From: Antitrichia curtipendula
Lineage: Eukaryota > Streptophyta > Bryopsida > Hypnales > Leucodontaceae
Direction: 5' to 3'
DNA: 64,000 nucleotides
Assembly (NCBI GenBank): GCA_951230915.1
Contig: OX579640.1
Location: 25,316,981-25,380,980 of the forward strand
Shown piece by piece: positions 17,016-60,898 of this stretch (position 1 is its first letter; every line of letters starts with the position of its first letter). The notes below the pieces were generated by a model. That model did not search any database. It was not told the origin of the DNA and saw only the letters and a program-made list of their open reading frames with translations. Both the position numbers and the translations under genes were made by a program.

Positions 17016-17446
17016 GTTGCCACCGCCAACTTGAACAGTTTGCTTTGACTCCCTTGCACGAGTGGGCAAAGTGATTCTTCTTCCACAATTGCCCTTGGAT
17101 AACCTGACCCATCAATACACTCTTAATAAGAAAAAACTTCATAATGTGAAAATCTTGCTCAATCAATTTACACATACTTGGATGCATCTATGCAGTCTTT
17201 AAATCTGTTACACGCACAATATTTCTCGACATCATTGCACTTTAAAGGCACCTAATAAACACTCACACAGTAAATATCACAAAGCAATGAAGAGAAGAAT
17301 GTCGCTCAAACCAAATCATCAAACTGACTCAACTCACAAGTTTCACGCTACAACTAACAAAAGAAATTACAATTTGTGGGTTTGACATCCACCACCTCCA
17401 ATATGTAAGCTTCATCTATAGCAAAGTTATTTGCATTTGTTTCTTG

Positions 17447-25500: not shown

Positions 25501-27608
25501 TTTGATAAGCTTTGACTTAAATGTAATGCACTCGCTGCCATTGTCAATGCTTTCGTTCTGTATGCATCGTCAGCCCAAGTAGCAACACTTGGACTTCCAC
25601 ACGCTTTCCATATATCGCGCAGTTTGATGAGATTTTCGTAATGCGTGGTGAAGAATTTCCTGTCAAACTCCTTTGCATTTATTTTGACAGATGCTTCTAT
25701 ATAAAATTGCGGATTGTTGTACACCACAAACTTTGCTTTCTGGCTCACAAACTGCACAAGATACTCTTCATTGGATATATGTCCCTCTTCCTTTTCCTGT
25801 TCATCTCGTTTACAAGCACCGACAACATGTTGGCCATCTACTGGCTCCCATACAATATTGCTCTTCAGCCACCTTCTCTGCAATGCGGTGCTTGAGAGAG
25901 ATGAATCCGCTCAGCAATGTTTCAAATACATGGTTTCGAATTCACGTGTAGCACCTTCTTGGCTAAACGGTACCTCTATGAACTCTGTCTCTCTCTTGTC
26001 ATTGCTATTGTCATAGCAATATGCAATGGGACGAAGGGTAATCGCACTTACTCCATCAGCTTCGGATCCCTTGAGGCGCTCGTACATTTCTTTCACACGC
26101 CAATCCATTAGCACCCTATAGTTTGTCTCTGCGTTAGCTACATCGCAGATGCTATCAGTCCTCGCATCAAAAATCAGACTTTGCCCCCATATATATCCTG
26201 CTCTGTACTCGGTCTCAGTAGGAAAAACAACAGGTGTTTTCGTCATGTTCTTCGGCAATACTCTTCTAGGCTCTTGCTCTGGTTCATCTTCAGAGGAATC
26301 ATCATCAATAACAACATTATCGCCATCATTTCCTTGTGGAGTACGGCTTTGTAAGGCTGCTCTTCAACGACGTATCTGTGCTGCTATTCGCTTCCTGACG
26401 CCTTACTCTTCTGCAGCATCCGTTGCACGAATGTGACGCCCCGCTTGATCTTCTGAGATGTTTACTACTACAGAATCACGTTGCACCTCATTCCCACTAT
26501 GTCCTCTACCAGCACCACTTCCTTCAGCAGCAGCACGTCCTCCACCAGCAGCACGTCTTCGAACAGCACCACGTTCTCCACCACCTACCCTTCCTCTATC
26601 AGCACCCCGTCCTGTACGATTGGCAATCTTTGCAGCATCCACTTTGGCCAGTACAACATGTGACCTGTAAATTCTTGCACTTGAACCCACTTTTGATTGT
26701 CTTGACCTTGATCCTGATCCAATTTCTGTGACTGTGATTGGAGCTCCTTCTTCTCCTTCACTTGGAAGCTCAGGAAAAACCGGGAGTTCAATTGGTACAG
26801 GATTTTGAGTTGCCTCCCCCCTCGATTGCAATGATTCTTCTACAACTTCCACCTCCACTACTGGTGATCCTACTGATGCGCTCTTTTGCACTTGTACCTC
26901 TTCATTATCACTTGTAGGTTGAACAACAACATCAGTTGCCGCAGATTGGAGGCGTTGACGCTGTGCACTCGGTCTACCAGAAATAACCCCCTCACTTGCA
27001 TGGATTCCTAATCCCCCTTCAACAGCAGCTCGCTTGCGGTTCCATTCATCCAAAGGAACCCAATTTGGATTCACTGGCGTAGCAAGATCCCGATATACTT
27101 CATTCAAGTCTTTTGGATCTCTTGGTGCAAACCGCTCTTGGACAACACCTGGGTTCACCCTTTCTAATTCTTCACGGCTTAGAATCTCCCGGTATTGATG
27201 ATGTAGTGCTCGCACTTGTTTTGAGGTCATCCCCATGAATTTTTAAACAGCTCTCTCTCGTTTAACCTGCAATTCCTGCGGCACTTTCTTCCAATCTTTT
27301 GCCACACTCTTCAAGCTACGCATGGGAGTAAGAACTAAGAGGAGTTGTGGCGGAACCGGAGCCACCATCAATATCTTCTTCAATTTATACTTTTCAAGTG
27401 CCATTTCTGTTGTAGTCACCGACACAATCAGTCCTCCGTCAACGGTGCCCGTGAGGCCCTCGATGACTCCATGTGAAGACGCCAATGCAGACTCATAACG
27501 CCCTTGCCCAATTGGAAAATCTGTTATCCACAAAGAAGACCTGTCATTGTCGTTCACTACGATCCACCATCCGTGCTCCAACCACTTTGAGTGCATCTTC
27601 GGTGCCAT
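22510..27608 (-). pseudogene. Large decayed gene of unknown, probably transposon-borne family
   Basis: From an ATG at 27608 (after an acceptor TTTCAG) one reading frame runs to about 24740. It is interrupted by stops at 27243 (TAA), 26403 (TAA), 26364 (TGA) and 25911 (TGA), with no frameshift. A ~650-bp MITE (24095-24741) then splits it. The frame resumes (NAKSGKPHF), meets TGA at 24063, loses one G in the run at 23970-23973, meets TGA at 23731 and continues to 22510. The N-terminal part is low-complexity and Arg/Gly-rich. The middle (NPLSMDDFFSINASKYRDSE) is compact but unrecognised. The block after the MITE (NHVYEFLIVDVEV; EDIPWSNEDYSNVLQQLKNW; GGIVILLNYPEE; ELKRLVQMYLPRNWGLVTLG) has the spacing of a Rossmann-type DNA methyltransferase without its DPPY motif. 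That resemblance is a guess. The C-terminal 300 residues are acidic and disordered. Confidence 0.55.
24095..24741. mobile_element. MITE-like insertion splitting the decayed gene
   Basis: The left end TGGGTGGATGCATGGTTGA, then GGCTCA, is repeated inverted at 24712-24741 (GGGTGAATGCATGGTTGA, then GGCTCA). About 600 bp of AT-rich non-coding sequence lies between. Coding sequence is protein-like on both sides and can be joined across it (VVQQ to NAKSGKPHF). A target duplication could not be read with certainty. Confidence 0.6.
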
Positions 27609-30783: not shown

Positions 30784-30791
30784 TTCAAAGT
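30784..30791. repeat. 8-bp target-site duplication, left copy
   Basis: TTCAAAGT immediately precedes the CAGGG end of the hAT element. It is identical to 46966-46973 after the other end. The uninterrupted MITE copy has TTCAAAGG at the equivalent site (51371-51378). Confidence 0.93.
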
Positions 30792-30807
30792 CAGGGTTGA
30801 CGAATTG

Positions 30808-31125
30808 GAACGTCCGGGGGCAAATTATGTCCAAAAATTGGACGTCCGGATGTCCGGACGCAGCGTCCGCGGACGCTGTTGCGGACGCAGTGGACGTAGT
30901 GGCCACCGTCCGACGGACGCAGACCACCGGATGGCGGTCGGCCGACGGGCGGTTTGACTCGGACGATCCGACCGCCCGATCCAGCGGACGGCCAGACCGT
31001 TCGATCGAGCGGACAGTAGGTTCGTCCGATCAATCGGACGACTTAGTCCGCTTCGGGAGGTTTGGGAGGGCGTCCGCAGCCGGACCTACTTTAGGTTTGG
31101 TGGCGGACGAGTATAAAGGCGGACG
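30808..31125. promoter_or_regulatory. GTCCG/CGGAC array 1 (left end) with TATA box
   Basis: Dense GTCCG and CGGAC pentamers in both orientations start just inside the left terminal repeat. Such subterminal motif arrays are the usual binding sites of hAT transposases. TATAAAGG at 31112-31119 lies about 150 bp before the ATG of the RING gene, so the array probably also contains its promoter. Confidence 0.7.
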
Positions 31126-31269
31126 GCCCTTCCATTTTTCCTCACTTCTTCTCTCCATTTAGAGGTGGAACCCGTGTCGGACGTTACAACCGTTGCTTCA
31201 TTGTGCTGGTTGCTCCTATACGGGTGGAGAGTGAGGTCAATTATTTTTTGATATCACTTGTCGTCAGTC

Positions 31270-34200
31270 ATGACAACGGAAGGTACGAGCAAGGGTACTG
31301 TAGCGATGACTTCAAGAGGTGGCAAGAGCGGGAAGACAAAATCAAAGGGGACTGCCCACGAGCTTCACTAGGACATTTTAGATGATCCAAATATCAAAGC
31401 GGAGAGCGAATGGGAGAAGGAGGAAGAAACTTATTGGACCTCCAAAATCTGCAAAAAATATGTGAAAATGTATCACATCGACAAATTGTGGCCTCGTGAG
31501 TTCCACATTATTCACACACGAGGGTTCTGTTGCAGGCCATCAAATTGCAAGGATGGACATTTTGTCCATCGATCACTTGAGGTTTGGCGGGCCCTCTTCG
31601 GGGACAAATCAATGAGTAAAGGTCTCATAAACTATAGCATGGCCTCTATGGTGTATGCTGAGCTCATATTGGCTTGGAAGGTAGACTGGAGCACATATCC
31701 AACGACAACTACGGCTCTGCTTTTGTTTACAAAAGGGCAAAAAGATATTCCCGATTTGTATGATCCAAAGGCAAGTCCAAGTGAGGCACCAAAATCACAA
31801 AAGCGACAAAAACATGCTTTAATGCAGGTTAAAAAAGAGATCATGGAGGGGGAAAATATTGAAGTACATTTGGATTCTACAAAGATTCCAACTACAATGT
31901 CAAATGCAACGGTGGAAGGTGTTGACGGAGAGGTGTTTTCAACTCCTCGGGCGGATTGGATATGCACACGCAATTTTACATCCATGGGTGAATAAAGTGG
32001 TGCTTCAAGCATGCGACCCGTGAAGGAGGAACCGGTGGCCTCGTCTGCACCACAAAAACGTCGGGAAGAGGTTCGTCCCGAACAAATGGCAAGGGCCATT
32101 GCATCAATTGATAATATCATAGCGAGCGATGCTACAAATTTTATGACACAAGTACCTTGCAATCAAGACTTGCCAACCACACCGAGCCCCGTATTGAGTC
32201 CCGTATTGGGCCCCGTATCAAGCCCCATGTTGGGCCCCGTATCGAGCCCAAGAGTTGAAGGGCAGATGTTGCCAAAAAATGGAAAGCAACTCGATGGCAT
32301 GGCACAAAATGTGTCCATTGATGACAACCCATTGGATAAGAGCTATCCGCATTTGTCAACTCAAAATGACGCACAATTGGAGGATCTTTGTCATTTGCCA
32401 ATGGCGAGTGAATTGGAAAGCTTGTTGGAAGCTTTTTATTTGTTTAGGATACATCAACAAGACATCTCTCTTCAACCAAACCAAGTAATCAAGACAAATG
32501 AGGCCGGTCCTAGTAACCCTGCAAACGAGGCGGGCTTGACTAAAACCGCAAACGAGGCCGGTCCTAGTAACCCTGCAAACGAGGCGGGCTTGACTGAAAC
32601 CGCAAACGAGGCCGGACCGAGTAATCCCTTTGCTGAATACATTGATCAATGGCCCAATTTTGTGATCACCTTGAAAAGATTGTTGATTACAGCTAAATTT
32701 GTAGCTAGCACTGCCCCCAAACTTATGGAAGTTGCTGAGGAATTCACCAAATCCGGGCCCGGGTTGGTGGAAGGTGCCTTGTCATTTTGGGATTTCGTCA
32801 CGTCTATGAAACCATTATTGGAGGAGCGGATCGAAAATAATCGCAAGCTGCTCATCTTTGCTGAAGAGAATAAAAAATACAAGGCCTTGAAGATAGAGCA
32901 CGAGAAATTGAAAGAAGACCACAAGCAATTGAAGGATGCATTCAAAGGAGTGTGCGCTAATTATGAAAGATTTGCGAACGCACAAGATTCTCGATATGAC
33001 ACTCTAGTTTCTCAAAGGGAATTTATCGAGAAATTGGAGTACGAAATTGTAGCGCTCAAGCAAAAGAATTTGAAGGATGGGGGATATGTTCTTCCAAAGA
33101 CCGGCGGAGCCGTGCGTATAGAAGCGGTTGAGGAAAACAACCAAAAGGAAGTAATATCCAAAACCGCCATGGATAATCCTCCTCCCACATTCCAAGACGC
33201 GTCCATGCAAACGGAAGGCCACGAGTTTGAAGAGGTGAAGCATGAACTAGAGTCGGTAACTCAATAAAACGTCTATTTGGAGGCACAATATCAAAAAATG
33301 ATGCAAGTAGTGGAGCTTGATAAATGCTTGCCAAAGAGCAGTTCCGACACTTGTTGGTTGACGTGGATTCAAAAACTACAAGACAAACCGTCTGTAGTAA
33401 CCCGAGCAATGAAGGGGCTTCTCAATTTAGCCATGAAGTCGAAGGAGCAATGCGATGCCATTTCCTCTGACCTCCTATCTATTAGAAGGATGTTTGAGGT
33501 ACATCATAGGGGTTCAATTGACGTCACATATTGGGGGGACATGTCGGCAATGTTTGAGCGATTGAATGACGCGCAGAAGATTGCGTCAAAGTCCATGAAT
33601 TGGACCTTGGAAGTAGAAGAAGGTTGGGCCCCTTACAACACGCATTTAGCGTACATCAAAGAGGCGGACAAGATAGTAGTGCATGGTGAAAGTTCAAATA
33701 CGGAACTATTGGAGGATAAATGCAGCCTTTGTCTAAATCATTTTGGTCCCGAGGGCGCCTTAATCATGGGCCAATGTCGCCACACTTACCATATCACGTG
33801 TATGGTGAAATCATCCCTTGTTCGTTCGGTTTGTCCCGAGTGTCGGTCTCCTTTGAGCCCTAGGTTTTACGAAATGGTTGGGCACGAGGAGAGCATGCCC
33901 CCTAGCCACGAACACAATCGATGGACCCTTCTACTTGACCAAAAGCCATTTCTATTCCAAAATTACATTCATTGAGGGCGACCTCTAATTTGGAATGCGC
34001 AAAAACTCATGCATGATGTTTGTGAGAACTACAATGACGAATTGGATGACTTTGACTGGATGACGCGCAATAGAGAAGTGGAGTTGCGGGCTCGAGGTAT
34101 TGAAGACTTGGAGGCTCGAGAATTGTTTTGTCGTAGCATGGGGGGACACTGGAGCATCTCACATCAAAAGTTCTTCCGATTTCTTGAAAAAGAAGTCCGG

Positions 34201-34776
34201 AAAGGAGAAGATGGCGTCTGGATAGAAGTGCAACCATCCTAAGAGTTCAATGAGCAGTACGGAGCATACAATCACAGTTTAATAGGGAGAGCCCTATTCT
34301 TATTAAAATTGGAAGAAGTTGCACAGGTTCGTGCTGCTTTTAATGTAGATGGGCTATCAAGCACAGAACATGCACTTGTGGAGGTGGCAAGTGCATTTGA
34401 TAAGAGGATCACCAACATTATAACGACGTAGAGGACTTTTCTACATGGCACAGGGCAAGTGATCTCGTTGACCCTTCGAGATGATGACAAAGCGGTAAAT
34501 GCTATGATAGAAAAGATTTATTCGGCTTTGAGAGCGTTAAAGGCACAGGAAGTAGATTTGTCTCCCACAAGGAAAAATAAATGGAAGATGGAAGACGAAG
34601 ATGACTACTCTCCAGAAACCAAACGACAATTCATCGCCGTGGACATGGAAGTCCGATCAGGAGGGGGCACAGCCTTCGGGTTGGGTGGTCCTCAAACTCG
34701 TAGAGCAAGTAAAAGATTTAAGGAACAAGAGGGTGCCTCTCATATTTCCGCAAACGGTAGCGATGATGCAAAATAG
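31270..34776 (+). pseudogene. hAT-borne C2CH-finger, coiled-coil and RING-H2 protein
   Basis: One frame of 1,169 codons runs from ATG 31270 to TAG 34774. It has in-frame stops at 31369 (TAG), 31993 (TAA), 33265 (TAA), 33973 (TGA), 34240 (TAA) and 34429 (TAG) and no frameshift. Near residues 55-120 is a finger-like domain (CKKYVKMYH, then NCKDGHFVH and NYSMASMVYAELIL) shared with the gene at 45241-46338. A Pro/Ser stretch and 18-residue repeats (32497-32632) come next. A coiled coil follows around residues 515-600 (ALKIEHEKLKEDHKQLKDAF). The RING-H2 finger is at about 818-861 (CSLC, CRHTYHITC, CPEC), with all eight zinc ligands. A tail of about 300 residues is unrecognised. If expressed it would be a ubiquitin-ligase-type protein. 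The stops make it a pseudogene unless they are read through or the intact source lies elsewhere. Confidence 0.75.
32497..32632 (+). repeat. 54-bp coding tandem repeat
   Basis: The units begin at 32497, 32551 and 32605, period exactly 54 bp, and encode NEAGPSNPANEAGLTKTA-type 18-residue repeats within the RING gene. Copies are nearly identical, indicating recent expansion. Confidence 0.85.
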
Positions 34777-35161
34777 TGTTTGTATTAGGGGGTTAACCAA
34801 TGAAATTTGTTTTGTACTTATTTGAATCTCATGAGGATTCAATATTAGTAATGCACAACACTCATGGTATGTCATGAGTTGCTTTTAATTAATGTATAAA
34901 TATTTATGCAATACAAATATGTTTGGATTTGTTTTTTCATCATGATAAATTTAACCTGCTTTATTTGTCAAATATGTTTCTTTTGCGTACCTATTGCAGA
35001 AGATCATACCTATTGTACATTTGTACAAGATCATTTCATATTATTGTTATGTTATTTTCTATAACCCCGTGCCTATAAATCACCCATTTTCATTTACACA
35101 TACATTTCTATTCGCGTAATCCACTTGTCTGCCTGTCTGCACACTTCAAACATCTTACCGA

Positions 35162-35372
35162 AATTGTAAGAACCGCCTGTCCGCCCGACAGGTTTTAGGT
35201 CGGCCCTTCCGCCGTCTGCCGTCCGCTGTTCGGACGGTCCAGATTCCCGTCCGCCGACCGCCCATCCGTTGATCCGATGGCCTATATTCCCGTCCGCCCG
35301 TCCGTTGTTCGGACGGACCAGATTCCCGTCCGCCGTCCGCTGTTCCAATGGCCCAGTTGGCCGTCCGCGTGA
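35162..35372. promoter_or_regulatory. GTCCG array 2, upstream of the transposase
   Basis: A run of CCGTCCGCC/GTTCGGACGG phrases separates the RING gene from the transposase, whose ATG is about 290 bp further on. CTATAAATCA at about 35072 is a TATA-like sequence, but it sits before the array. The array has no coding potential. Confidence 0.6.
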
Positions 35373-35662
35373 CCGTTGTGGGAGGATTTTTTTTTTCCTA
35401 TATTCAACGGTCACATATAGATGAAGACTATAAGAGTCCTGAAATTGACATTTGCAAACATTCCTAAAAAACTGAACGTTAAGATTTCCAAGGGCTAGGC
35501 GTTGCAATTTTTTGTGTTCCTTGCTTGGTAATGCATAGTTCAGTGGAAAGGGGGGCCTTGTTTTCCAAGGCTTTGTGCATAAACATTTGAATGATTTTAC
35601 CCAATTGTTATCATTATGTTTTGAATTTAGGGTTTCAATACACAGAGCCTAAAACAGCCACC

Positions 35663-38600
35663 ATGACCAAGGATTGGTTTTCTTGGTACGAAACCCTATC
35701 AAATGAAAAAGTACAATGCAAGGCTTGCAAATTGGTATTTGCCAAGAAGCCGGTCCGTATGTTTAGTCATTTGGGATATGCAAGCACATCGGAGAGTCGT
35801 GGCAAAGGAATCAGCCTTTGTACTCAAATGACATCTGAAGTTCAAGGTCTATTTGTTCGTTGCAATGGAGTGATTCCACAAAGAGGTACTCCACACAATG
35901 TGGATGGCAACGACACACCTATGCCTATAGTTGTTCGTACTATGTCAAATGCGAGAGACACTGTGAACTCTACCAAAGAAGACTCATGCACGGCACCAGA
36001 GGAATATGTTGGTGGTTCTTCCCAAGAAAATCCAAGTACACAAGCATCAGGTGGACGTGGAACTCAGTGGACATCAAGCAATAGGCCTCAAAGACAGAGT
36101 AGGCTAGTAGAGGGATTCGACGAAGCAAATAAACGCATTTTGAATGCAATGTGGGCCAATTTCTTTTTTGCGGCAAACATACCATTTGCTGTATCCCGAA
36201 ATCCAGCCTTCAAAGAAGCAATGAAAAAAACGGCAGAGTTTCACCAACCTTATAGCCCACCATCATACCATGGTCTACGTCATAAATTGCTTTACCAAGC
36301 AAAGATAGACTTAGAGGTCAATCTTCGTAAGCGGACAGAAACCAGTATTAGGAAGTTTGGAACCACATTGTCTATTGATGGATGAACCTCGGTTTCGAAT
36401 CGGCCATTGATAAATGCTATGCTTGTGTCATCCGCGGGTGAGCAATTCCTAGGATCGGTGGATACAACTGGGAAAACAAAAGATGCTCCATATTTGGCCT
36501 CTATATTAGAGAGTTTTATAGAACAAGTGGGCCCTGCAAACGTAGTGCAGGTGAGTACAGATAATGCGGTTGTAAATCCAGCAGCATGGAGTTTGGTATC
36601 TACTACCTATCCCCACATTTTTTTCCAAGGTTGTGTGGTGCATGCCTTGAATTTGTTGCTAAATGATTGGGCAAACGAACAATGAATTGATGACGTCGTG
36701 AAAGATTCCCGAAAGATAGTCAAATTCTTCAAGAAAAGGCACATGCCGCTTGCGATACTTCGGAAATATTTGACGCAGTACAACTTGTTGTTGGCGGTGG
36801 AAACAAGATTTGCCTTGAATTACAACATGGTTGCACGTATGCTCAAGGTGAAAGCACAATTGCAACAAACTGTGACGGACCCGCAATGGGAGGAATATGC
36901 TAGAAAGCACTCGCGAAAATCCAAAACTCGTTTAGAATCCGAACGGGTGAAGAAGACCATTCTAAGTGGGCATTTTTGGCGCCGTTGTCAAAATTTTGAA
37001 GATGTGACAGCTCCAATTGTCAATGCTCTTCGTGATTTGGATGCGAAGACACCATGCATGGGCAAGGTGTTACATATTATGAGGAAACTAGAGAAGCACG
37101 TCCTCGCTTTAGACAAAGAGCCTTTTTGTTTGGCTTTGGACAAAGCCATCCCGTTGGTGAAGGCGTTCTACGAACGACGTGATATGGTGAAGGCCGATTT
37201 ACATTATGTAGGAGCACTTTTGAATCCCTACCTTCTTGAAGACAAAGAACTAGCCGACGACACCAATGCCATGGCTGCATGCAAGCGCGTTTTGATGCAA
37301 ATATGTACACCTTTAGAGTATACGAAGGTGGTGAAGGAATTTGTAGCCTTCCGCCATAGGGAACCTCCGTTCTACAACATGTTGGATCCGGGTGAACAAC
37401 AATTGTGGGCGCATGCTTGGTGGGATTTTGAGGGCGCGTGTGGGAAGCTCATTTCTCCAATTGCCAAGAGGATTTTGGCCCAACCGGTATCATCGTCTTC
37501 ATGTGAACAAAATTGGAGTAGCTATTCTTTTGTTCACAACAAATATCGGAACAAGTTGAAGCCACAAAGAGCACAGGATTTGGTATATGTGTATACCAAT
37601 TCCAAAGTCCTCGGTGCATCAAAGCAAAATGACGAGAAGAAGTGGTACGATGAGAACCTTGAGTCGGAGGATTTGGCCTTGTCTTCATCGGAAGACAAGG
37701 GTGGTGAATCCGGTGAAGAAGTTGATCCCTCATGGACGATGAAGATGACCATGGCATCCGCAATTTCGATGATGAACCGCTTCGAAGCCCACCTCATTAT
37801 GATGCAGACATCGGAGATCATTGTGAAGACCCTTACAAGTTTCCGTCGGATGAGGACGGCTGTGAATATGACGAAGGTGGACCTTCCATAGCTAAATACT
37901 TAGATGGAACCGGGTTGTTACGTAGTGAAAACATTCTAGCAAATAGAGAAAATACTCATGCGAAGGTAGCGGAGGAAGATGAGGAAATGGTTATAGGTGA
38001 TGAAACTCCCCAAATGGATGAAGTGATTCGAATTCCTGAGTGTCCATCCATGACAACGGTAGGAGCGGAAGAAAATGATCAACACGAAGACATGAGAGAG
38101 TGTGGGGTGAAGTCCCACACAAATGTGGTCAACTAGAGTATTGAATTACCAGAGGCATTGACAAGTGAAACTATTGGACTTTTTGGCATTCAAAATGCCC
38201 AAGCACCTCGAATAGAGGGAAGTCAAGATCCATGTGTATTGGAGTCTGTGTGCCCAATGCCATACCGCAACGCCAAAGACATGAAGCACCTCGTGCGAGA
38301 TCCTCAATTACCATCACGTAACGGTCCTCGACATGCACTATATACAAGCGGTAGCACGACTTTGAATGGTCCTGGAGACTCACGGTTCAAAGAACAACAT
38401 TTGAGCAATTTGAAAGAATTGCACATTGGAGCCAATCCCAATCCATCTGTTTCATCAGACAACGATGATGTGCAATCATTGGAGTCTATGTTTCGTCGAT
38501 TTTCTGGCCATGCAAAGCATTCTCCGATCAAATTTTCAAACCCTACAGTGGAAGCTTTGTCCGCAGAGAAGACAAACATTCCAGGAGGTTCGGAAGCACG

Positions 38601-38919
38601 TCCACCCGCGGTGAAGGAGTCCAAAAAAGCTAAGAGGAAAAGAATAATGGAGCCTTTTGCAATCTCTCCATTGAAAAAACAAAATGTAGGTAGAACCCCC
38701 CTTGATGTAAGTCTGCCTCTAACTAAGCGAAAGGTGAAACCAATCCACGATCTTAAGGGAGGTATTGGAAAGTCTCTACTAAAAGTCAAAAGGGATCATA
38801 AGTTAGGTAGACCAGTGAGATCAAGCACATTGAAACAAGTACAAGAAGAAGGAAGGAAGATTGTACAATCTTCATCAGATAGTATGCAAAATTCATCCAG
38901 TGACGATGGGATACAATAG
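35663..38919 (+). pseudogene. hAT transposase (DUF659 and hAT dimerisation), broken
   Basis: The ATG at 35663 has a strong context (GCCACCATGA). The N-terminus carries a BED-like finger (CKACKLVFAKKPVRMFSH). The DUF659/RNase-H-like core has the first acidic block SIDG just before a TGA at 36383, where the family has Trp. It continues PLINAMLVSSAGEQFLGSVD, VSTDNAVVN and GCVVHALNLLLNDW. A second TGA is at 36683. The C-terminal dimerisation region is SSSCEQNWSSYSFVHNKYRN near 37490-37560. Near 37725 the meaningful frame shifts and continues as an acidic, then basic tail (MDDEDDHGIRNFDDE onward; TAG at 38134) to 38919. The tail may be a fused second protein. This copy cannot make active transposase. 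Confidence 0.85.
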
Positions 38920-39138
38920 GTCATAGTAGCGGGGCTGAAGTCAAAGGAGATAGTGACTATCAACCATAGTTTATAAAGATTGAGAAGTTGTAAACTTGGG
39001 TGTTTAGTTTCTTCCCCTAAACACATTATGTTATGACAATTCATTGTTTGAACTTTAAGTTTGTAATACAAATTTGCTCATTCATGTTGTGCACACCATC
39101 AAAATTTTGTTTTTTCAAATACCTTAAAACTAGCGAAG

Positions 39139-39354
39139 ACCGTTTGTCCGCCTGTCCGCCTTGTGGCCCGTCCGTGCCTTGGTCACTTCCGTCCGATGGG
39201 CGGACGGTCCGACCGCCTGTCCGCCTGGTGGCCCGTCCGTGCCTTGGTCACATCCGTCCGACGAGTGGACGGTCCGACCGCCCGTCCGCCTGGTGGTCCG
39301 TCCGCGCCTTGGTCACCTCCATCCGACGGGCGGACAGTCCGACCGCCCATCGGA
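39139..39354. promoter_or_regulatory. GTCCG array 3, after the transposase
   Basis: Three near-repeats of GGCCCGTCCGTGCCTTGGTCAC occur at roughly 58-66-bp intervals, with GTCCGCC and GGACGGTCCG between them. It begins about 220 bp after the transposase tail. Unlike the other arrays it heads no recognisable gene. It could mark a deleted gene or act only as a transposase-binding array. Confidence 0.6.
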
Positions 39355-41567
39355 CCATGGTAGTTCATGTTTTTTTCTCATTTAGTGCAGCATAGGATTC
39401 CTGAAATGGCCAGATCATCTCCAAAGAGTGTGCCTTCATGACAACAAGCATCCAATGTGAATACTTCAAAGACATTGAACTCCTCATGGCACCGACATCA
39501 AACTTCATTCTTCAATGTGCACATCATATTTTTAGGTGCAATCTTGAAATTAAACATTTCAATGATATTTTGAAATGACCATCTTGAAAGATCAAAATGA
39601 AATGCTACCTATAGTTCTAAATTTTTGATGATAGATCGTAGATTTAATTATATTCAAAAATTTATTTGGATTTTAATCATATATTACTATATATTGTAAG
39701 ACATCTCAATTTTAAAATAATTGTTTTTATGAAGAAATTTGTCGAAGTAAGCCAAATCCGACTTAATGTCATGAAACTAGAAACAATTGCTATGTACTTA
39801 TATAATACTATTGCATCAAAGTCACGATCTTCTAAGATATTTGTATGCAAAGTTCTAATATAGGATTTAGGATTTAGGGTTTAGGGTTCATGTCATTCAT
39901 ATAAATGTTGTCCAAATTAGAAGTGTATTTTGAAAATGGATGTGATAATATTTTGATGTAATATTAAAAAATCATTTTGGTCATGATAGTATAGATTGAT
40001 ACCTAATTAGTAATTACCTACTTATAAGAAATTGCCCCATTCAATGTCAAATAATGTTGTCAAAAATCATTTGGAGTTATATAACTTATATGTTGCGGAC
40101 TTGCGGTCTTGCGGAGTGCGGATCATGAAGTTAGAAAAAGCATATAGAGTTGTCTTATGTCTCTAGAATTCAAAATTCTTTATTCAAAATTGATATCAAA
40201 GAATATTAATTGTCTATTAGAATATTTTTTTCATTGGGATTAACAATTCTTCAATTCTTCCAAAAGTTATTAGCGTATTATTTTTCATTTAATAGTGCAT
40301 CAATTTCTACTTCACAAATTTTAAAAAATGAATGTATAGTTCTTTTGAGATTAACCTCTAATTTTCTAAAGTCCCATTGTCCCATCGAGGGACAAAATGG
40401 ATGTAAGATTTTTAGGCAGGCTCCTATGGCCTCAATATTTTTTGTAATTTTCTGAGTTTTTTTGGTATCTTTTAGAATAAATAACTTGAAGTATTCATTT
40501 TTGAATTGAATTCTAAGAGTTAAAATCAAAAAAAAAATTTCATGAGGTCTAGATTCCTTGCTAGAATAATCTCAGAGTGGAAATTAGTATATTTCAATTC
40601 TATCTTACTATCATAGAGCTATTAATGATTTAATTTTTCCTTCGATCTTGAATCTACTTCTATCTAACAATTTTTTAATGAGTGAAAACTAAGTGTTTCT
40701 TTTTTAAAATCTTTTTTTTAGATTCTCAACTCAATTATTTATCATATAAAATTAGACATTCACCATCACTAGAGTAGCCTTTTTTAGTTAAAAAGGTTCA
40801 TCGCAAAAAAATGTAGTTAAGCAAGGTGCCAACTGCCAAGGTGCCTAAAAAGTAGGGGTTAAACATTTCACATTTAATCATTTATTCATAACTCAATTGC
40901 CTAAATTTTGGCTAAAATGCACAAGGTGAAAGACGTACGTGAATATTCCTCAAAGGGTTGAATGACCAAACATCCCAATTTAGAAAAGCTAGAGAAGTAA
41001 ACATTTAATTTTTAAATTCCATGCACAATTGCACATTGGTGAATTCTTTGAGGTATAAATTCATTCAACTAATGTGGGACAATGGTGTTGATAAAGTTAC
41101 ATAAAAACTTTATTGTTGAATTTGTTTAACAAAATATATTCACATAAGAAATTAAAAAATATACTTCAAAGCTTTATTTGCAAACTTGTGCGTGCTATGA
41201 ATTCAAGAAACACCTAAACCCAATCAAGAATCCTCAAGTTAAGTTCTTAATTGAAGATGGTCCATATATTTCTTGAGGAACTTAATTTGCATTTGTTTTC
41301 ATATTTTTAATTAGTTATGATTTCTTACATTTGTAACTTTAGAGTACAATTTAGGATTTAGGTTTTAGGGTATAGGGTTTAGGGTATAGGGTTTAGGATG
41401 TAGGACTTAGTGTATAAAATTGAAGATCATTGCATTAAAAAACCGTTGGAGTTCTATTTAATGATTCAAATTCTTTAAGTAAGAAAGTGAATCTCGATGA
41501 GATTTTTGTCTTTCCCATCCTTGTCATTATTTGCTAGTCGAGGTCGTTTTAGGAGTCAGATGATGCA
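39355..41567. other. Non-coding interior of the hAT element with TTTAGGG-like tracts
   Basis: AT-rich sequence with no protein-like frame. Degenerate TTTAGGG-type tracts lie at 39861-39888 and 41351-41410 (GGATTTAGGGTTTAGGG, TATAGGGTTTAGGGTATAGG). They match the plant telomere unit with interruptions and are too short and interior to be a telomere. Confidence 0.55.
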
Positions 41568-41985
41568 GCCGTCCGCCTGGTCGGACGACCTCGAAAAATC
41601 TCTCAATTTGATCTCCACTTGAGAGGGGCTGTCCGATCAGGCGGATTGCTCAGGTCGGACGACCCAGGGCGGACGGCAGCCGTCCGTTGAGTCGGACGGG
41701 CGGCGTCCGCCTGACTGGACGGTCCTTACAATGCGGACGACTGTCTGTTCACGTCGTCTCGTCCGCCCGATCAGGCGGACGGGCGAAGCGTCCGCCTTCG
41801 ATTTTAGGGCCGAACGGCCCAGAGCGGAAGGCGGCCGTCCGATTCACCGGGGCCGTCCGATGTGTCGGATGGGTGGCGTCCGCTTGATCGGACGGTCCTG
41901 ACGAGGCGGACGATGATCCGTCCGATCAGGCGAACGGTCGAGGCGTCCGCCTTGCATAAAAGAGTCAGACAGCCCGTCCGCTCCT
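41568..41985. promoter_or_regulatory. GTCCG array 4 with TATA box, upstream of the kinase-like gene
   Basis: This is the longest array, dense in GTCCG/CGGACGG in both orientations. CATAAAAG at 41955-41962 is followed by a last GTCCG and, about 240 bp downstream, the kinase-like ATG at 42201. The layout copies array 1 (array, TATA, short leader, ATG). Confidence 0.65.
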
Positions 41986-42200
41986 CACTTTTATCTTCCC
42001 CCTTGTGTCATGCAAGAGAGAGCGGAGAGCTTGGTGGTTTATCCTCCATTGGCTCCTTTCTAAGGGAAGATAAGAGTGTGATTTCTAGGGGATACTTGTT
42101 GCTTTTTTTTTCTACATTTCGTGTATGATCATTTGGCAAATCGTATATTGCCTTGTGGATTAGAAATTGCAAGTGCACTTCTAAACGTGATTTCATCACG

Positions 42201-43685
42201 ATGCCGAGACCAAAGAAGGCTGCGAAGGACAAACGAGTGAAGTCGGACAGTGAGGCGAGTATGGACGCTCCTTCTCTCGCTTGCAAAGCATTTCTCATTG
42301 AATGCATTGTCAAATTTTATGAGTCGGAAACCACTGCGTCGTTGTATACCAAATATGCAAGGTATGAAGACGAGTGCCCAGCTAAATTCAAGGGAGATAT
42401 GGCACAGAAGTTCACGGATGCTTTAAACGTACCCTACTGGATTCATGAAATGGAAAGTAAGGGCTTTCAATAAGTTTTGAAGAACAAGGTCCATGATGCA
42501 TTGTGGAATGCAAAGGTGATCTTAGAGAAGTACGGAAAGCAACACCGCGTAGGTGATGGCGCTTTTGAACAAGTCATTTTGAGGGCAGACTTGTTTGTTC
42601 GCCAGTGCGCCCCTTTTGCAAAGAATCGAAATAGGCGAGGTTCAATGGGTTGGTGGAATAGTGATGAGGGAGTTGTGGAGTTGCAACGTGGGCGACAACA
42701 TCTCTTAGAGCTTCCAGAAACAGCAAGGGTGATTCCACAAGATGATCAAATCCTGAGGGGTGGATACGCAACAATTCGGAGGGTCCGAATTGAAGGATGT
42801 CGTGAGATACCCACATTTTGGGAGTTCGCAACAAAGGTATCTCATCAACAACGCTCACGACTTCAACTCGCAAGGTTGGAACACCAAAACGAGTCAATGG
42901 CAGTGAGAATTCCACATAATGGAGTTATCCGGTTTTCTACTGTTTATGCAACGCAAAACGAAGGGTACTCGTATTGGTGGAATGGCGGAACATTGAGGCA
43001 AATGTTAAAATTGGATAAGGAATATCCCGATAACATTGGCATTCGGTTGGCTTATTCTCAACCGACCCCGGAAGAGGTGACCAAAGCTTTTTTTCTTGGT
43101 CGTTGGAGGAAGAAGCGCACAGAGCTTGCATGGGCATTGGTGCACCTCATGAATGCAGTGCACAGCGCTGGACATTTGCACAATGATCTTTCACTGGACA
43201 ACATTATGTTTCACTTTCCCAATGATGAGTCACGTGTTTACATTGGAGTTTGCGATTGGGGCATGACTACTTTACGTAATGAACCAATGAAGTCCTTGTA
43301 CACGTTCACCTCTCAGAGTGAGCGGACTGAGACCTTGAAAAAGAGGTGGTAGGTGGACCCTTCTATTGCATACTTGCATAGAAGAGATGCGGATGTGTCA
43401 ACGATACTGATTTTATCACGTAAATTGGAGGAATATGCGGTTGGTCGAATAGCTCAAGCCATCAACAATGGTTGCATGTCGGCGGACTATGTGAGCTTAC
43501 ATCGGGAAAATGAAGGACATACAAGATTTAGCCATGAGGATTTGGCAAGAATTTTTCACCTTTACTTGGAGCGCCTTTGTGATTCGGTGATTGATTCTCG
43601 CGGTAGCTTGTCCGAAATCATCCATCGATTTACCAATAATTACAACTGGCCTATTCCGGATGAACACTTCCGCCACTCATATTAG
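42201..43685 (+). pseudogene. hAT-borne protein-kinase-like gene
   Basis: A single frame of 495 codons runs from ATG 42201 to TAG 43683, with internal TAA at 42471 and TAG at 43350 and no frameshift. An N-terminal region of about 190 residues is unrecognised. The kinase-like part has a glycine-rich loop (LRGGYATIRRVRIEG), a candidate ATP-anchoring lysine (FATKVS), a hinge/alpha-D-like WWNGGTLRQML, the catalytic loop HLHNDLSLDNIMFH (HxDxxxxN form) and a DxG equivalent (VCDWG). These are in normal order and roughly normal spacing, so the domain looks catalytically complete apart from the stops. A helical C-terminal part follows. The N-terminus MPRPKKAAK resembles the MPRNSSS start of the opposite gene. 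It could be captured host sequence or a long-standing gene of this hAT family. Confidence 0.7.
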
Positions 43686-44034
43686 TGTCTATGGTGTTAG
43701 TGGACGACATAGAAGTGATAGAACTATAGAAGTATTAGGTAAATGTAGAGGCGAGTACATAAATTTGCATGATTGTGTGCAAGGATTTTCTAGTATATAT
43801 ATGCACCATCAATGTATGCCAATATATGTGCACCCTTATAATTCATATAAAGTTTTGAAATGTTTGTGTATTTTGAAACTTCCAATGTTCAATGTCTATC
43901 ATCTATTTATGCATTCATCATATGTTTTGCTTGAAATCCTTGGATGAAAAGTGCAATGCAACAATTATTGTTGATGGATGTTAGCTTGGTATGGTTGGGT
44001 TCAAAATTGTATAATCAATGTTGAGCACATATAA

Positions 44035-44966
44035 CCCCTAAAAGACCAAAGTCGTTTTTTTGGCAACATAGCGATTTTGGGCAACTCACTACAAATGAAA
44101 TTTATATTTTTTTTCTTTGAAATTTTCATACAACACGTGCCCGAGGAGTAGCTTTAAGGCCCAACAATTTTCATAAATTTTGACTACATGGTTAAAAAGT
44201 TATTGCATGATATGTCGTTTTCAGTCCTTGGTGGGCAGCACGGGCGACGAAAAAACTTCTTCAAAAATCACTTTTTAAGAAAATAAAAATTGAAATTGAT
44301 TCTTTAGATTTACATGTACATGGGAAGCTTTGAATCATTCCATTTAGATCTATGAATCAAAAGTTATGAGGATTCTTAGTTTAAGGGTAGTTATGGAATT
44401 TCAACTCTAAAATAAACTTTGAAGTCTTTTATTTAACTCAATTTTCAATATTTTTGAAAAAAAATAAAAAAATTGGGTGTAGATTGTTTATTACAACATT
44501 ACAACCGTTAGATTGGCATTTTTCAATTCCATAAATTAATTCTTCACAATTTAGTGTTTTGAATCGTTCTCTACCTCTTCCTACTAACTATTTTTTTCCT
44601 ATATGTTGTACAATTCCAAATGATCTGAAAATTTTCAAGCATGTAGCCAACTTGCCTTCAAGAATAAATCCAAAGAGTAACCACCATTTTGGACATTTTT
44701 TCATATAAATGTGACCTTGTGAAGGGCAGCTGCCCGTTTTTTCGCAGGGACAAAAAAAGGATTTTTGTCAATTCAAATACTATTATCTTGCAATCCACAT
44801 GGTGGAAAATTCTGAAATTTTTTCCACATCTTCTTAAACAAGTTTACTACAAGATCCTATGGTTACATGTGTCCAAGAATGTTTTATTTCTAAAATTTGA
44901 CACTAGTATTAGAAATGGCAGTTTTGGAGCATTTTTGGTGAAAACATAGTCAAAAACATTTAGGGG
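44035..44966. mobile_element. CCCCTAAA-end MITE, copy 2
   Basis: The left end CCCCTAAAAGACC and right end CATTTAGGGG are bordered by ATAA on both sides (TTAT when the right flank is read inverted). It is an inverted copy of the element at 5060-5977: the right part (GGCAGTTTTGGAGCATTTTT) matches that copy's left part inverted. It lies between the two convergent genes of the hAT element. Confidence 0.65.
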
Positions 44967-45240
44967 ATAATGATAATAGAATTTCATCGTACGCAAATAT
45001 TTTTTATACTGAAAAGCAATACAGTTGATACTTGAACAATACCGCTATGATGATACCAAGTACTAACGTCCAAATACATTTTAGTACAATATATTTACAT
45101 CAAAATATTTTAGTACGTAAATGCTATTCGCCGAGATGCCGATATTTTTGTATTATGATTGCCACACTCCATAATCCAATGGCAAAAGATTCCAAGGCCC
45201 ACTCGATTGTAAGACAACGACTAAAATAGCTCTACCTACT

Positions 45241-46338
45241 TTACTCGGAATCTGAATGGATGTCATCTCTACGTTTTGGTGGTGTGGAACCGGATCCATA
45301 AGTGCCAAGATATGGTCCTCCGCCCCAAGTGCATCCATAGTCGCTTGGCGTAGCTCCTTGATTGGGATTTTCATAGTAAGGACCTCCAAAAGTTGGAGGA
45401 GGAACTACATCACGGTGCTAAGACCTTCCTTGCCTTGGTTCGACATGACGAGAGCCTGTGTGACGCTCATATGAACCACCCGTAGTAGATCCGGACAAGT
45501 ATTGGGAGCCTCCTTGGCTAGATCCAAAATCATGTGTGGTTCCATGGCTTCTTTATGGGTTGTAATAAGTACCTCGGGGGTCGTTAGCGTAGTGTAAGAC
45601 CCTTTGACCATCTTGTGAACCAGATGCAGTACGATCATGTTGGTAGGACCTGTCATGCCCGTGTTGTTGACCCCGATCCTCCATGCTCCTATGCATAGCT
45701 TCTTGCATTTGTTGATTGAACTCGATGTCTTCCCGAGCTTCTTGACGCTCATGTCCCACTGTAAATGTTACGGGTGCTGGATTGTCTTCTATATCGTCGT
45801 CGTCCGACCATTCATCCTTAGCATCCGGCAATACAACCGGCGGAAATCCAAACTGCCCTCGATTGGACCACATTCGCATACAATCGCTCGGTTGAGTCCA
45901 ATTCGTATAAATAACAGCGTTAGTGCGCTTCATATGGTCAACATTTTTCCCGTAAATTGTGCGCCAGTCTACATCTTTGTGGAGTACAATCTCTGCCCAA
46001 ACCATGGCCATGTTTGAATAATTCATAACATTTGGTTTGGAATCAGGCAGCTCAGCGCACCGCGTTACTTCCTCGTATCGATGCACAAAGTGTTGTCTCT
46101 CACACGTGGAAATTTGTCCTTCCCAGCGTTGAACTTGTTTGTCTGCTCTTTCTTGTGACCACATTTTGGAGACGTGCGTCATTTTGACGTACTTTTTGCA
46201 CATTGTGCAGTCCCAAACCTTCTTGGGCTCTTCTTCCCATCCAGTTTTAGCTACATACATTGGATTTGCCCAATCTCCCCAGTTCATGTCCTGGGATTTG
46301 CCTTTGTTACTGGACCTTGAACTACTATTGCGAGGCAT
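45241..46338 (-). pseudogene. hAT-borne C2CH-finger protein, related to the RING gene's N-terminus
   Basis: On the minus strand, ATG 46338 to TAA 45241 is one frame of 366 codons with stops at 45553 (TAA) and 45418 (TAG). The N-terminal third contains WDCTMCKKYVKMTH, then TCERQHFVHRYEEV, NYSNMAMVWAEIVLHKDVDW. This aligns block by block with the RING gene (CKKYVKMYH, NCKDGHFVHRSLEV, NYSMASMVYAELIL, KVDWST). It defines a C-x2-C, H, C-x3-H-x2-H finger-like domain. The C-terminal half is disordered (acidic, then His/Gln/Gly/Tyr-rich repeats such as GGPYLGTYGSG). No enzyme domain follows. A DNA-binding accessory role in transposition is plausible but inferred. Confidence 0.7.
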
Positions 46339-46607
46339 GATAACCTTGATTAAAATGAAATGATTTGATGACAAAGTTCACATGAATCTTTAGAACAACT
46401 GAACAAAACGTTTGACACTTGCCAATGAAACGAGGTGAAGTTGTTAACAAGGCCTTCAAAACCAAGTAATCACCAAAATAATTTGCAATTCAGTATCCGA
46501 GCACAATCGTTCACGCACCAAAACGAAAGGGGCGCGCAGAGCCACTGAGAGGCACTGGATCACCCACTCCGCAAGGGAAACGATTGTGAGGAATGAGCCG
46601 TCCACTG

Positions 46608-46955
46608 CGCTATTTATGGCGTCCAAAGGCGGACCAGGCAATGCGGACGTCTACGTGCGAATCGGACGGCCCAGAATCGGACGGGCAGATCGCGCGGACG
46701 TCCCGTCCGCACGTGCCCGTCCACAAGATCCGACCGCGCGATCTCGTCCGCACGATCGCGTCTGCGAGCTCGACGCCCTGTCCGCCCGAGGGCCCGTCTG
46801 CGAGATCCCGTCCGCGGGACTGTCCGCGAGCCTCCTGACCGCGCGGACGAACCGACCGATCAGACGTTCCAACCGATCGGACGGCCCGTCCAGGGATGTC
46901 AAAAGACGTCCGGGGGTCAGCGTCCACGTCCGCCGGACGTGGACGCGGACGTCCT
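46608..46955. promoter_or_regulatory. GTCCG array 5 (right end) with TATA box
   Basis: Dense CGGAC/GTCCG motifs run up to the right terminal repeat. On the minus strand ATAAATAG (46610-46617) lies about 270 bp before the ATG at 46338, so this end array doubles as the promoter of the minus-strand finger gene, mirroring array 1 at the other end. Confidence 0.7.
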
Positions 46956-46965
46956 GTCAACCCTG

Positions 46966-46973
46966 TTCAAAGT
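46966..46973. repeat. 8-bp target-site duplication, right copy
   Basis: TTCAAAGT directly follows the GTCAACCCTG end and is identical to 30784-30791. Confidence 0.93.
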
Positions 46974-50190: not shown

Positions 50191-51182
50191 CAGAAGAACC
50201 GAACTAAATCCAACTGACGTCACTGAACGATAAAATAAAAATGAACTTCACCGAGGAGACTAGCCAGGGAGTCGATTGAAATTCACTGATGTTGGACTTC
50301 GAGAAACACTTGCTTCATTACTTCAACGAGGGAAGACGTAGATGGTCGAGTTCTGCCCAGAAACTGCGAATCTAGAAACTTCAAATGCAACGACAAGTTT
50401 AACACGGACGTCCTGTACAGACGAATGCCATTTTTGAGAACTGAGACTCTTGTATTAGAGCATGATTCCAAGAATGTGTTCGAAGAGAACAGAACAACGA
50501 ACAGAAGACCCAATCAAAGAAAATAATGGAACGGGGGTTACAAAGGCAGCAGTAGACGGGCAGCAGTAGACGAACCTGGAAAAGCGGAGCGCCGGTGTGA
50601 GCATCGACAGCATTAAACGGACGATCGCTTGCGTTGATGTCGAAGTCTTCGTATAGAGCTCAATCTCATTGAATTCGCTGTTTTGGAATTCGCTAGTTGT
50701 AACAGAGTTTCACAGATTGGCTGCTCCGCTTTGCACTGAGACTCTGTCCTACCAACCGCAGGTTGTTGAGTTAAAAGGGTTAAGGATTGATGTCGTAGTA
50801 AGGCATGTACACGCACAATCGCCACTCGAAAGGAAAGCTCTTAGAACATTTCAAGTGATGACTATAGGGTGCTATCACATTGTCGTTCTACCCAGTGGCC
50901 TTGTATTTGGTGTTGTGCTTGGGGCCCAACAGTTGATATTATTTTTAATTCATTTTTCTAAGATAGAAAAATAGACGAGAAATCTAACAAAAGTGGTTTC
51001 ATATTTTTTAGAGTAATATTGAATTAGTTATGAATTTTCAGAAGACATGTATAGTAGGTCCATATTTCTGACCCTAGGTCTTCTATAAACCGCTCACTTG
51101 GAAGATGGAATGAAGCAAAGCCAATGATTTGATGGGACCCCTTTTTTCTAATCCATTAATAGCACTATAGCATTCAATTTAA
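50191..51182. other. Spacer, nothing recognised
   Basis: Mixed-composition sequence with short open stretches on both strands. None has a domain or convincing splice context. Confidence 0.4.
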
Positions 51183-51769
51183 TCCCTAAAGCTCCGAGGG
51201 TGTTTTCTGCCAGAAAACACTCAAAAGTATCACTTCTGTTGCATTCATTTAAGGAAAAAAAAAATTTGGTTTTTTGGGAATTTAACCATATGACCTTGTA
51301 CTTAACTTGTTTGAGATCATGTAGTAAAAATTTCATCAAATTTGACCGTACAAATTGGAAGATATTAGCATTCAAAGGTGAACCAAAAGTTTTCTTCAAA
51401 GAAGATGCTTAAATTGCCTGATACACTAAGTTTGTCCATAACTTTCTCATCACTAGTCCAAATAGAATGAATCAATGCTTCATGTAGAAGTAAAAACATA
51501 ATCTTTTAGGAAAAAAATTTAAAAAAAAATATTTTTATTTATTCTAATTTTTTTTGGATTGCCCGCAGTCTCCATTTCTTGCTCATTGTGCCATAACTTT
51601 TTCATCCAGCATGCGATTGGAAAAAAAATTATATATCCAAAAAGATCTTGTAAAGGTACACAACCAGTCAACCACCAAAAAATCCCAAAAAAGTTCACTT
51701 CAAATTGAAAGAATAGGAAGCTACCCGGACCCAAATTGTCCCCCGAGGGGACAAGCGGAGCTTTAGGGG
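51183..51769. mobile_element. CCCCTAAA-end MITE, copy 3 (uninterrupted)
   Basis: The left end TCCCTAAAGCTCCG and right end, read inverted, CCCCTAAAGCTCCG form 14-bp terminal repeats with one mismatch. Flanks are TTAA and ATAA-like. The 587-bp body aligns end to end with the MITE that the 16.2-kb hAT element interrupts. It holds the empty target site TTCAAAGG at 51371-51378. Confidence 0.8.
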
Positions 51770-60686: not shown

Positions 60687-60898
60687 CTGCAGATGCGAAA
60701 CCCCATGCTCAAAGTGGACTTCAGAATGAATGACACCGGTCCACAACAACAAACACACGTGCTAATTGAGACGTGCCTCCTCTCTTTCTCATGGACGTGC
60801 TAATTCAATCGGACGTACTATTTCTAACGGACACGCATGCTCGATCTAGTCAAGCTAGATAAGAGAGTTGAAAGGAAATGGAGCCTCACCTTTCTTAC

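What the first reader, a model, noticed from the sequence alone, without database searches (positions are those of the whole stretch)
30784..46973. A 16.2-kb hAT transposon with perfect ends and four genes
Seen directly: inverted ends CAGGGTTGAC/GTCAACCCTG, exact 8-bp duplication TTCAAAGT, and a hAT transposase inside. Known: CAGGG ends with 8-bp duplications are hAT features and typical elements are far smaller. Inference: this is a large multi-gene hAT lineage carrying a RING protein, a protein-kinase-like protein and a finger protein, a combination I do not know from any described hAT family.
Basis: partly seen in the sequence, partly recalled or inferred. Interest (0 to 1): 0.88.

Follow-up and report, generated by a model that had tools for sequence, protein, structure and literature searches.

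The report
Four-gene giant plant hAT transposon
This is one decayed copy of a large jumping gene that carries four genes of its own, a transposase plus three helper-like proteins, instead of the single transposase gene that such elements usually have, and the genome holds many sister copies and a second family with the same four genes in another order.

Summary
Confirmed. The body 30792-46965 (16,174 bp) has exact 10-bp inverted ends and an exact 8-bp duplication. It is one insertion: its joined flanks align across the junction to a related empty site in the same window (51180-51612). The source genome (400 Mb; a moss is likely but unnamed) holds 304 matches to the left end. Of ten sister copies read, six have exact but different 8-bp duplications; four measured lengths are 16.2-17.6 kb. 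The four genes encode a RING protein, hAT transposase, a protein-kinase-fold protein and, on the opposite strand, a zinc-finger-like protein. The window copy is broken by stops, and no copy with all four genes intact was seen. A second family in the same genome (one copy complete, 20.4 kb, own duplication) has the same four genes in another order. dN/dS between families is 0.23-0.45 for the four, so they are not passengers. Dense GTCCG arrays lie ahead of each gene in both families. RING and finger proteins share one putative DNA-binding domain. Copies show C-to-T decay in CG, CHG and CHH contexts, as plant silencing leaves. Most likely mechanism (inferred): finger-domain proteins bind the arrays; RING and kinase act there against silencing, or for transposition, much as VANC does in Arabidopsis VANDALs.

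The parts
30784..30791 (.). left target-site duplication TTCAAAGT
   Evidence: identical to 46966-46973; the related empty site has one copy, 7 of 8 bases the same
30792..30801 (+). left terminal inverted repeat CAGGGTTGAC
   Evidence: the longer left-end pattern has 304 genome matches with up to 2 mismatches, reversed control 0
30812..31124 (.). GTCCG/CGGAC array at left end, upstream of RING gene
   Evidence: 41.5 sites per kb in the 8 sister copies that could be counted
31270..34776 (+). RING-H2 protein gene: N-terminal finger-like domain, long helical middle, RING; one frame with 6 premature stops here
35179..35367 (.). GTCCG array upstream of transposase
35663..38969 (+). hAT transposase gene (about 1,100 codons); here 2 in-frame stops, 11 bp shorter than most sister copies, further breaks in the C-terminal part
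39146..39355 (.). fifth GTCCG array, after the transposase, with no gene found behind it
   Evidence: seen in 8 of 10 sister copies; not covered by the stretches fetched in the other two
41571..41980 (.). GTCCG array upstream of kinase gene
42201..43685 (+). protein-kinase-fold gene with an N-terminal helical region; 2 stops here
45241..46338 (-). finger-like protein gene sharing its N-terminal domain with the RING protein; 2 premature stops here; the end is inferred from sister copies
46630..46950 (.). GTCCG array at right end, upstream of the finger gene
46956..46965 (-). right terminal inverted repeat
46966..46973 (.). right target-site duplication TTCAAAGT
51180..51612 (+). related empty site: paralogue of the target without the element
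   Evidence: joined flanks align over 440 columns at 78%, 11 gap columns, none near the junction

Best explanation
Shown: a giant four-gene hAT element, moved as one unit with 8-bp duplications, in a family with 304 left-end matches; the same four genes in a second family with another gene order; GTCCG arrays ahead of every gene; dN/dS well below 1 for all four genes between families; methylation-type decay of the copies. Inferred: the transposase cuts and pastes in the usual hAT way at the GTCCG-rich ends. The finger protein and the RING protein, which share a putative DNA-binding domain, are guided to the GTCCG arrays. There the RING protein (putative E3 ubiquitin ligase) and the kinase modify or remove host silencing factors, keeping the element's own promoters open. 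In short, a self-encoded, sequence-guided anti-silencing system like VANC of VANDAL elements, built of other proteins.
For: Unit: exact TIR/TSD, empty site, sister copies, gene spacing, second family with TSD TCACTCCT and 20,355 bp. dN/dS between families: TPase 0.23-0.25 and RING 0.41-0.45, kinase 0.24-0.27 and finger 0.33-0.37. Arrays: 22-42 sites/kb upstream of each gene against 0.8-3.0 in coding regions, 0 behind the kinase, 0.7 in flanks; arrays upstream of each gene in both family-2 loci read. Shared domain: 38% over 104 aa, E 3e-20 for that one comparison. Silencing: singleton C-to-T rates CG 2.83%, CHG 2.78%, CHH 1.19% against 0.17% for A/T transitions. The analogy: VANC21 binds a short motif arrayed at high density in non-coding parts of its element and causes loss of methylation (passages of PMC5735166).
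Against: No binding, ligase, kinase or demethylation activity was tested. The arrays also sit in the subterminal ends, where hAT transposases bind repeats (recalled), so they could serve transposition alone. The fifth array has no gene behind it. No methylation or expression data were available. The RING family fold was predicted poorly (pLDDT 47), so the shared domain's DNA binding is a guess from its Cys/His pattern. Among the ten sister copies none had a RING gene free of stops, and no copy with all four genes intact was seen, so present activity is unproven. dN/dS among sister copies is only 0.41-0.60.
Confidence: 0.5

Rival explanations
1. Transposition-cofactor model: the three extra proteins assemble or regulate the transpososome. 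Arrays are binding sites that bring the distant ends together and autoregulate transcription, like TnpA of En/Spm or the Myb-like partner of Harbinger transposases (both recalled).
For: Arrays occupy both subterminal ends and all promoters; linkage recurs in two families and seems deep: a contig with a 38%-identical transposase carries the RING gene and a CCGTCCGC array.
Against: A ubiquitin-ligase-type RING and a protein kinase are not parts of any transpososome known to me; hAT elements move without them (recalled). It does not account specially for the methylation-type decay.
Confidence: 0.35
2. Captured host genes carried as passengers by an otherwise ordinary hAT.
For: RING and kinase domains are common in host genomes; DNA transposons capture gene pieces (Pack-MULEs, passage of PMC6431247).
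Against: Long co-linear homologues in many contigs, same four genes in two families with arrays at each, dN/dS 0.23-0.45 between families. Passengers would be fragments and evolve neutrally.
Confidence: 0.04
3. The end pair belongs to two separate small elements or a chance nest.
For: None found; AT-rich spacers inside could hold older inserts.
Against: Related empty site with one duplication copy; sister copies with the same end-to-end content at about 95% identity in most stretches; 54 of 61 kinase-finger distances lie between 4,126 and 4,164 bp.
Confidence: 0.01
4. Integrated DNA virus or Maverick-like element.
For: Large, multi-gene; viral kinases match the kinase fold, as protein kinases in general do.
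Against: Transposase is hAT; TSD 8 bp; Pfam scans of the gene pieces showed no capsid, polymerase or integrase (spacers not scanned); scans of viral contigs confirmed no relative.
Confidence: 0.01

Closest known systems
hAT superfamily (Ac, Tam3, hobo, Hermes)
   Same: Transposase domains, 8-bp TSD, short TIR beginning CAGGG, subterminal repeats.
   Different: 16-20 kb with four conserved genes; textbook hATs are about 3-5 kb with one transposase gene (recalled).
VANDAL/Hiun MULEs of Arabidopsis with VANC
   Same: Multi-gene element (VANA, VANB, VANC); short motif at high density in non-coding parts, upstream regions included; sequence-guided helper protein (passages of PMC5735166).
   Different: Other superfamily (recalled); VANC itself was not compared here; motif GTCCG; here RING and kinase proteins are present.
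En/Spm and MuDR two-gene elements
   Same: Transposase plus helper protein, subterminal motif arrays (recalled).
   Different: Unrelated transposases; 3-bp or 9-bp TSD; no RING or kinase gene (recalled).
Giant eukaryotic transposons (review PMC6431247, passages only)
   Same: Large and multi-gene.
   Different: The word hAT does not occur in that review's main text; the passages seen treat Helitrons, Polintons, Teratorn and giant retroelements.

Membership tests
hAT superfamily | hAT transposase with DUF659 and C-terminal dimerisation domain | tested here: met
   110.8 and 39.2 bits, cut-offs 34.7 and 21.4
hAT superfamily | conserved acidic triad and CxxH | tested here: met
   D263, D324, C348, H351, W365 and E639 invariant in 16 sequences; that these are the hAT catalytic and structural residues is recalled
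hAT superfamily | 8-bp target-site duplication | tested here: met
   window; 6 of 10 sister copies exact, 1 more 7 of 8, 3 not testable because an end is missing or N; one family-2 copy exact
hAT superfamily | short TIR of CAGGG type | tested here: met
hAT superfamily | cut-and-paste activity | not testable with these tools
   only the outcome (insertions, one empty site) was seen
VANC-type anti-silencing system | short motif arrayed at high density in non-coding regions of the element | tested here: met
   unlike the VANC21 motif, the sites here lie in both orientations
VANC-type anti-silencing system | element-encoded protein binds the motif and removes methylation | not testable with these tools
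   needs bench work
VANC-type anti-silencing system | VANC homology | not tested
   no VANC sequence was compared; it is claimed only to work alike
MULE/VANDAL superfamily | MULE transposase and TSD of about 9 bp (recalled) | tested here: not met
   TSD 8 bp and hAT transposase
Maverick/Polinton | protein-primed polymerase, integrase, capsid genes (recalled) | tested here: not met
   Pfam scans of the four genes' pieces found none; spacers not scanned
Eukaryotic protein kinase (kinase-like gene) | protein-kinase fold with catalytic Lys, HxD...N and DxG | tested here: met
   (24 sequences): K212, N334, D352 invariant, D329 at least 90%; 1,762 PDB matches at E up to 0.001, best 7e-9, TM 0.62 by target but 0.39 by query
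RING E3 ligase (RING gene) | RING-H2 cross-brace Cys/His pattern | tested here: met
   invariant C818, C821, C836, H838, H841, C844, C855, C858 in 13 sequences; zf-RING_2 matched in 12 of 12 homologues at the lax limit of E 10, best 2e-8
RING E3 ligase (RING gene) | ubiquitin transfer | not testable with these tools
   bench assay needed

The most novel reading that the evidence does not exclude
A long-lived plant hAT lineage that encodes its own epigenetic escape kit: array-binding proteins that bring a ubiquitin ligase and a kinase to each of its promoters and ends, so that a giant element stays active despite methylation in all contexts.
Probability: 0.4. Interest if true: 0.92.

Novelty: new variant of a known kind. 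Interest (0 to 1): 0.82.

Why it matters
hAT elements are thought of as small single-gene transposons. A hAT lineage of 16-20 kb with a conserved four-gene set under selection, and with about 300 left ends in one genome, shows that a cut-and-paste transposon can evolve a multi-protein programme. If the extra proteins counter silencing, this is another case beside VANC, with a ubiquitin ligase and a kinase as tools, and the arrays make the target sequence directly testable.

Tried and rejected
Two separate small elements: rejected by the empty site and sister copies. Passenger cargo: rejected by dN/dS and by the second family. Reassigned stop codons: considered, because genes keep one frame with several stops; rejected because many sister copies lack them (no stop in 31 of 86 kinase copies, and in 26 of 60 transposase matches, counted by eye) and singleton changes are mainly C-to-T/G-to-A (760 of 999). 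A gene behind the fifth array: only a 55-codon remnant with one stop was seen, and an exact pattern for its start found nothing in sister copies. Virus: scans of viral contigs confirmed no relative. Kinase in bacterial or archaeal genome contigs: none confirmed. TATA-like boxes behind the arrays: TATAAA at -158 of the RING gene in 9 of 9 copies examined (window included), other genes less clear, so not relied on. Structure of the RING protein: too poor to search. Empty sites: joined flanks of the window and seven sister copies were compared with the DNA then loaded (window and ten sister loci); only the window's gave one. Two interim notebook entries are wrong: one search gives 31 TPase-kinase pairs (recount: 29), one search gives 57 close kinase-finger distances (recount: 54).

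Not done: right-end pattern count, joined-flank search in the genome (not completed), a search for shortened derivatives, tests in named moss genomes, a test of whether all 17 extra transposase copies are one family.
Full report
OBSERVATION. The ends are as described: TTCAAAGT | CAGGGTTGAC ... GTCAACCCTG | TTCAAAGT, body 30792-46965. The strongest single proof that this is one insertion is in the window itself. The two flanks, joined with one duplication copy, align to 51180-51612 over 440 columns at 78%; 11 columns are gaps, none near the junction (ATTAGCATTCAAAG in both; the eighth base of the duplication differs). Of eight such joins (window and seven sister copies) only this one found an empty site, but only the DNA then loaded was searched.

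GENES. RING gene 31270-34776 (+), transposase 35663-38969 (+), kinase-like gene 42201-43685 (+), finger gene 45241-46338 (-). In this copy all are broken. Pfam places the transposase in hAT above cut-off; RING (26.9 bits, cut-off 27.3), kinase (21.7, cut-off 31.7) and finger (zf-C3HC 20.9, cut-off 22.2) are below. Homologues settle the first three: 68 proteins for the kinase, 30 for the transposase and 12 for the RING protein at E up to 1e-3 (in one search only the 7,991 best candidates were scored). The finger gene was not searched in that database. RING homologues are mostly long and co-linear, with the eight RING ligands invariant in 13 of 13 sequences. The kinase model (pLDDT 82.9) has a protein-kinase fold behind an added N-terminal helical region. 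The finger protein and the N-terminus of the RING protein are homologous to each other (38% over 104 aa, E 3e-20), with a shared C-x7-H ... C-x3-H pattern.

HOST. The genome (400,189,583 bases, 303 contigs) is unnamed. Named kinase homologues are two of Ceratodon purpureus, a moss (P0023, P0035), and one under a Bacilli MAG (P0003), probably misplaced; others carry only generic names. The window has a DYW-type PPR gene. A moss is an inference, and the species is not identified.

SISTER COPIES. Kinase: 86 copies scored of 1,373 candidates. Transposase: 59 scored of 1,973, giving 60 matches. Finger: 146 of 1,809. Right end: 40 of 311. Left-end pattern with up to 2 mismatches: 304 matches, reversed control 0; these are ends, some perhaps of shortened copies. 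The protein lists hold only the best-scored copies, so linkage counts are lower bounds, and a missing partner may be a low score or a real loss. 29 of 59 transposase copies (window included; my recount) have a listed kinase copy on the same strand 6.4-10.3 kb downstream. 61 of 86 kinase copies have a finger copy on the opposite strand 2-9 kb downstream, 54 of these 61 at 4,126-4,164 bp; controls: 0 of 86 same strand, 0 of 86 upstream. 36 of 59 transposase copies have a finger copy on the opposite strand 5-20 kb downstream (same strand: 1 of 59). 35 of 40 right ends have a finger gene within 1.5 kb.

Ten copies were read, the first ten of twenty chosen because transposase and kinase were paired, so the choice favours complete copies; the second ten were not given. 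Six have exact 8-bp duplications, all different (ATCAAGTA, GGGTTAGC, GTCTAAGT, GTGACGTC, GTTGTAGA, AAAATAAG); two of these six have one changed base in the left TIR. One has 7 of 8. Two run into N at one end. One lacks its left part. Four lengths were measured: 16,198, 16,298, 16,549 and 17,575 bp. The body, including the AT-rich spacers, aligns at about 95% in most stretches (range 82-98%). Intactness: the kinase frame is free of stops in 4 of 10. The transposase is free of stops over the matched part in 1 of these 10, and in 26 of 60 matches genome-wide (by eye). The RING gene has at least 3 stops or frame breaks in 10 of 10, two of them partial. So no copy with all four genes intact was seen, and present activity is unproven.

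SECOND FAMILY. A diverged transposase (P0079) gave 47 rows, 17 of them outside the capped family-1 list. A Ceratodon kinase (P0035) gave 87 rows, 33 of them beginning at query residue 21-24 and absent; two further rows absent look like family 1 and were left out. 12 of the 17 transposase copies have one of the 33 kinases on the opposite strand upstream, 10 of the 12 at 12.3-13.0 kb; 5 have none listed. Two loci were read. Both hold kinase (<), finger (<), RING (>), transposase (>), at 67-68%, 54-56%, 44-45% and 65-66% protein identity to the window's genes, with GTCCG arrays upstream of each gene. One has perfect ends, TCACTCCT | CAGGGTTGTC ... GACAACCCTG | TCACTCCT, 20,355 bp. The other has its left end (CAGGGTTGTC) at position 846 of the joined stretch, but no right end was found. 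So the gene set, the array habit and the end type are kept, while order and sequence have changed.

SELECTION. Between families dN/dS (Nei-Gojobori, pS 0.49-0.57) is 0.23-0.25 for the transposase (four family-1 copies against two) and 0.41-0.45 for RING (window and three copies against two), 0.24-0.27 for the kinase and 0.33-0.37 for the finger gene (three copies against two each). All four are thus kept by selection. Among sister copies the mean ratio is 0.41-0.60, because most singletons are post-insertion decay (one copy left out for RING and one for the finger gene).

DEEPER RELATIVES. A 6.3-kb contig filed under a cyanobacterial MAG (L029, CADCWO010000266.1; a misplaced eukaryotic contig, by inference) has a 38%-identical transposase part, an open 875-codon RING frame with both domains (34% and 28% identity), and a CCGTCCGC-type array at its broken end, in the order transposase, RING. 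It is too short to show kinase or finger genes. Two pairs of transposase and RING hits have the same longest-contig length (17,649 and 8,444), which suggests linkage there too.

ARRAYS. GTCCG/CGGAC: 99 of the window's 138 sites lie inside the element, 82 of them in five clusters. In sister copies: 41.5, 22.5, 34.1 and 31.3 per kb upstream of RING, transposase, kinase and finger; 0.8, 1.7, 3.0 and 1.5 in their coding regions; 0 in 1.3 kb behind the kinase; 0.7 in flanks (8 to 10 copies per class). A fifth array after the transposase was seen in 8 of 10 copies; the stretches fetched did not cover it in the other two.

SILENCING MARK. Singleton C-to-T changes per opportunity in the four genes: CG 0.0283, CHG 0.0278, CHH 0.0119; A/T transitions 0.0017 (direction and context taken from the majority of copies, no outgroup). 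CHG as high as CG points to plant-type methylation of these copies.

MECHANISM. See best explanation. Shown: unit, genes, arrays, selection, decay. Inferred: binding of arrays by the shared domain, ligase and kinase activity, anti-silencing. The VANC parallel rests on passages of PMC5735166: a short motif, arrayed at high density in non-coding regions, bound by an element-encoded protein that causes loss of methylation. There the motifs lie in the same orientation; here they lie in both.

NOVELTY. Paper searches listed no paper whose title describes a multi-gene giant hAT: 20 of 71 papers shown, 20 of 514, 8 of 8, 8 of 3,363, 0 of 0. Only listings were seen, except passages of PMC6431247 and PMC5735166 (found). 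Repeat databases such as Repbase were not available, so an unannotated consensus may exist. By superfamily it is hAT; as a multi-gene giant it is a new variant.

Noticed in passing
51180-51612: A 78% paralogue of the insertion target lies 4.2 kb right of the element, a local repeat that serves as empty site.
   Followed up: yes
44293-44856: AT-rich spacer behind the kinase is about 78% similar, in reverse orientation, to a spacer between RING and transposase in both family-2 copies; possibly a shared regulatory piece or an old insert.
   Followed up: no
G000:C5: C5 (37.2 of 400.2 Mb) holds 36 of 146 scored finger-gene copies, by eye more among the diverged ones; a repeat-rich, perhaps sex-linked, chromosome is possible.
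   Followed up: no
G000:C2:253340 and 283816; C6:10921266 and 10950340; C3:49722854 and 49753100: Inverted pairs of equally scoring copies about 30 kb apart: large palindromes or assembly folds.
   Followed up: no
X2 locus, G000:C4:30986000 onward: The family-2 copy abuts a piece of a RING gene 85% identical to the window's, on its left side: it seems to have inserted into a family-1 element.
   Followed up: partly
14301-17111 (-): PPR gene in one long open frame with E and DYW domains (Pfam DYW_deaminase 4e-42), an RNA-editing type factor.
   Followed up: partly
22513-27242 (-): Cluster of long frames with no Pfam match of note, perhaps another multi-gene mobile element.
   Followed up: no
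59748-60761 (-): Frame with an NLI-interacting-factor-like phosphatase match (7.6e-10) in a GC-richer part of the window.
   Followed up: no
6269-7706 (+): Remnant frames, one with a weak DDE_1 match (0.0089).
   Followed up: no
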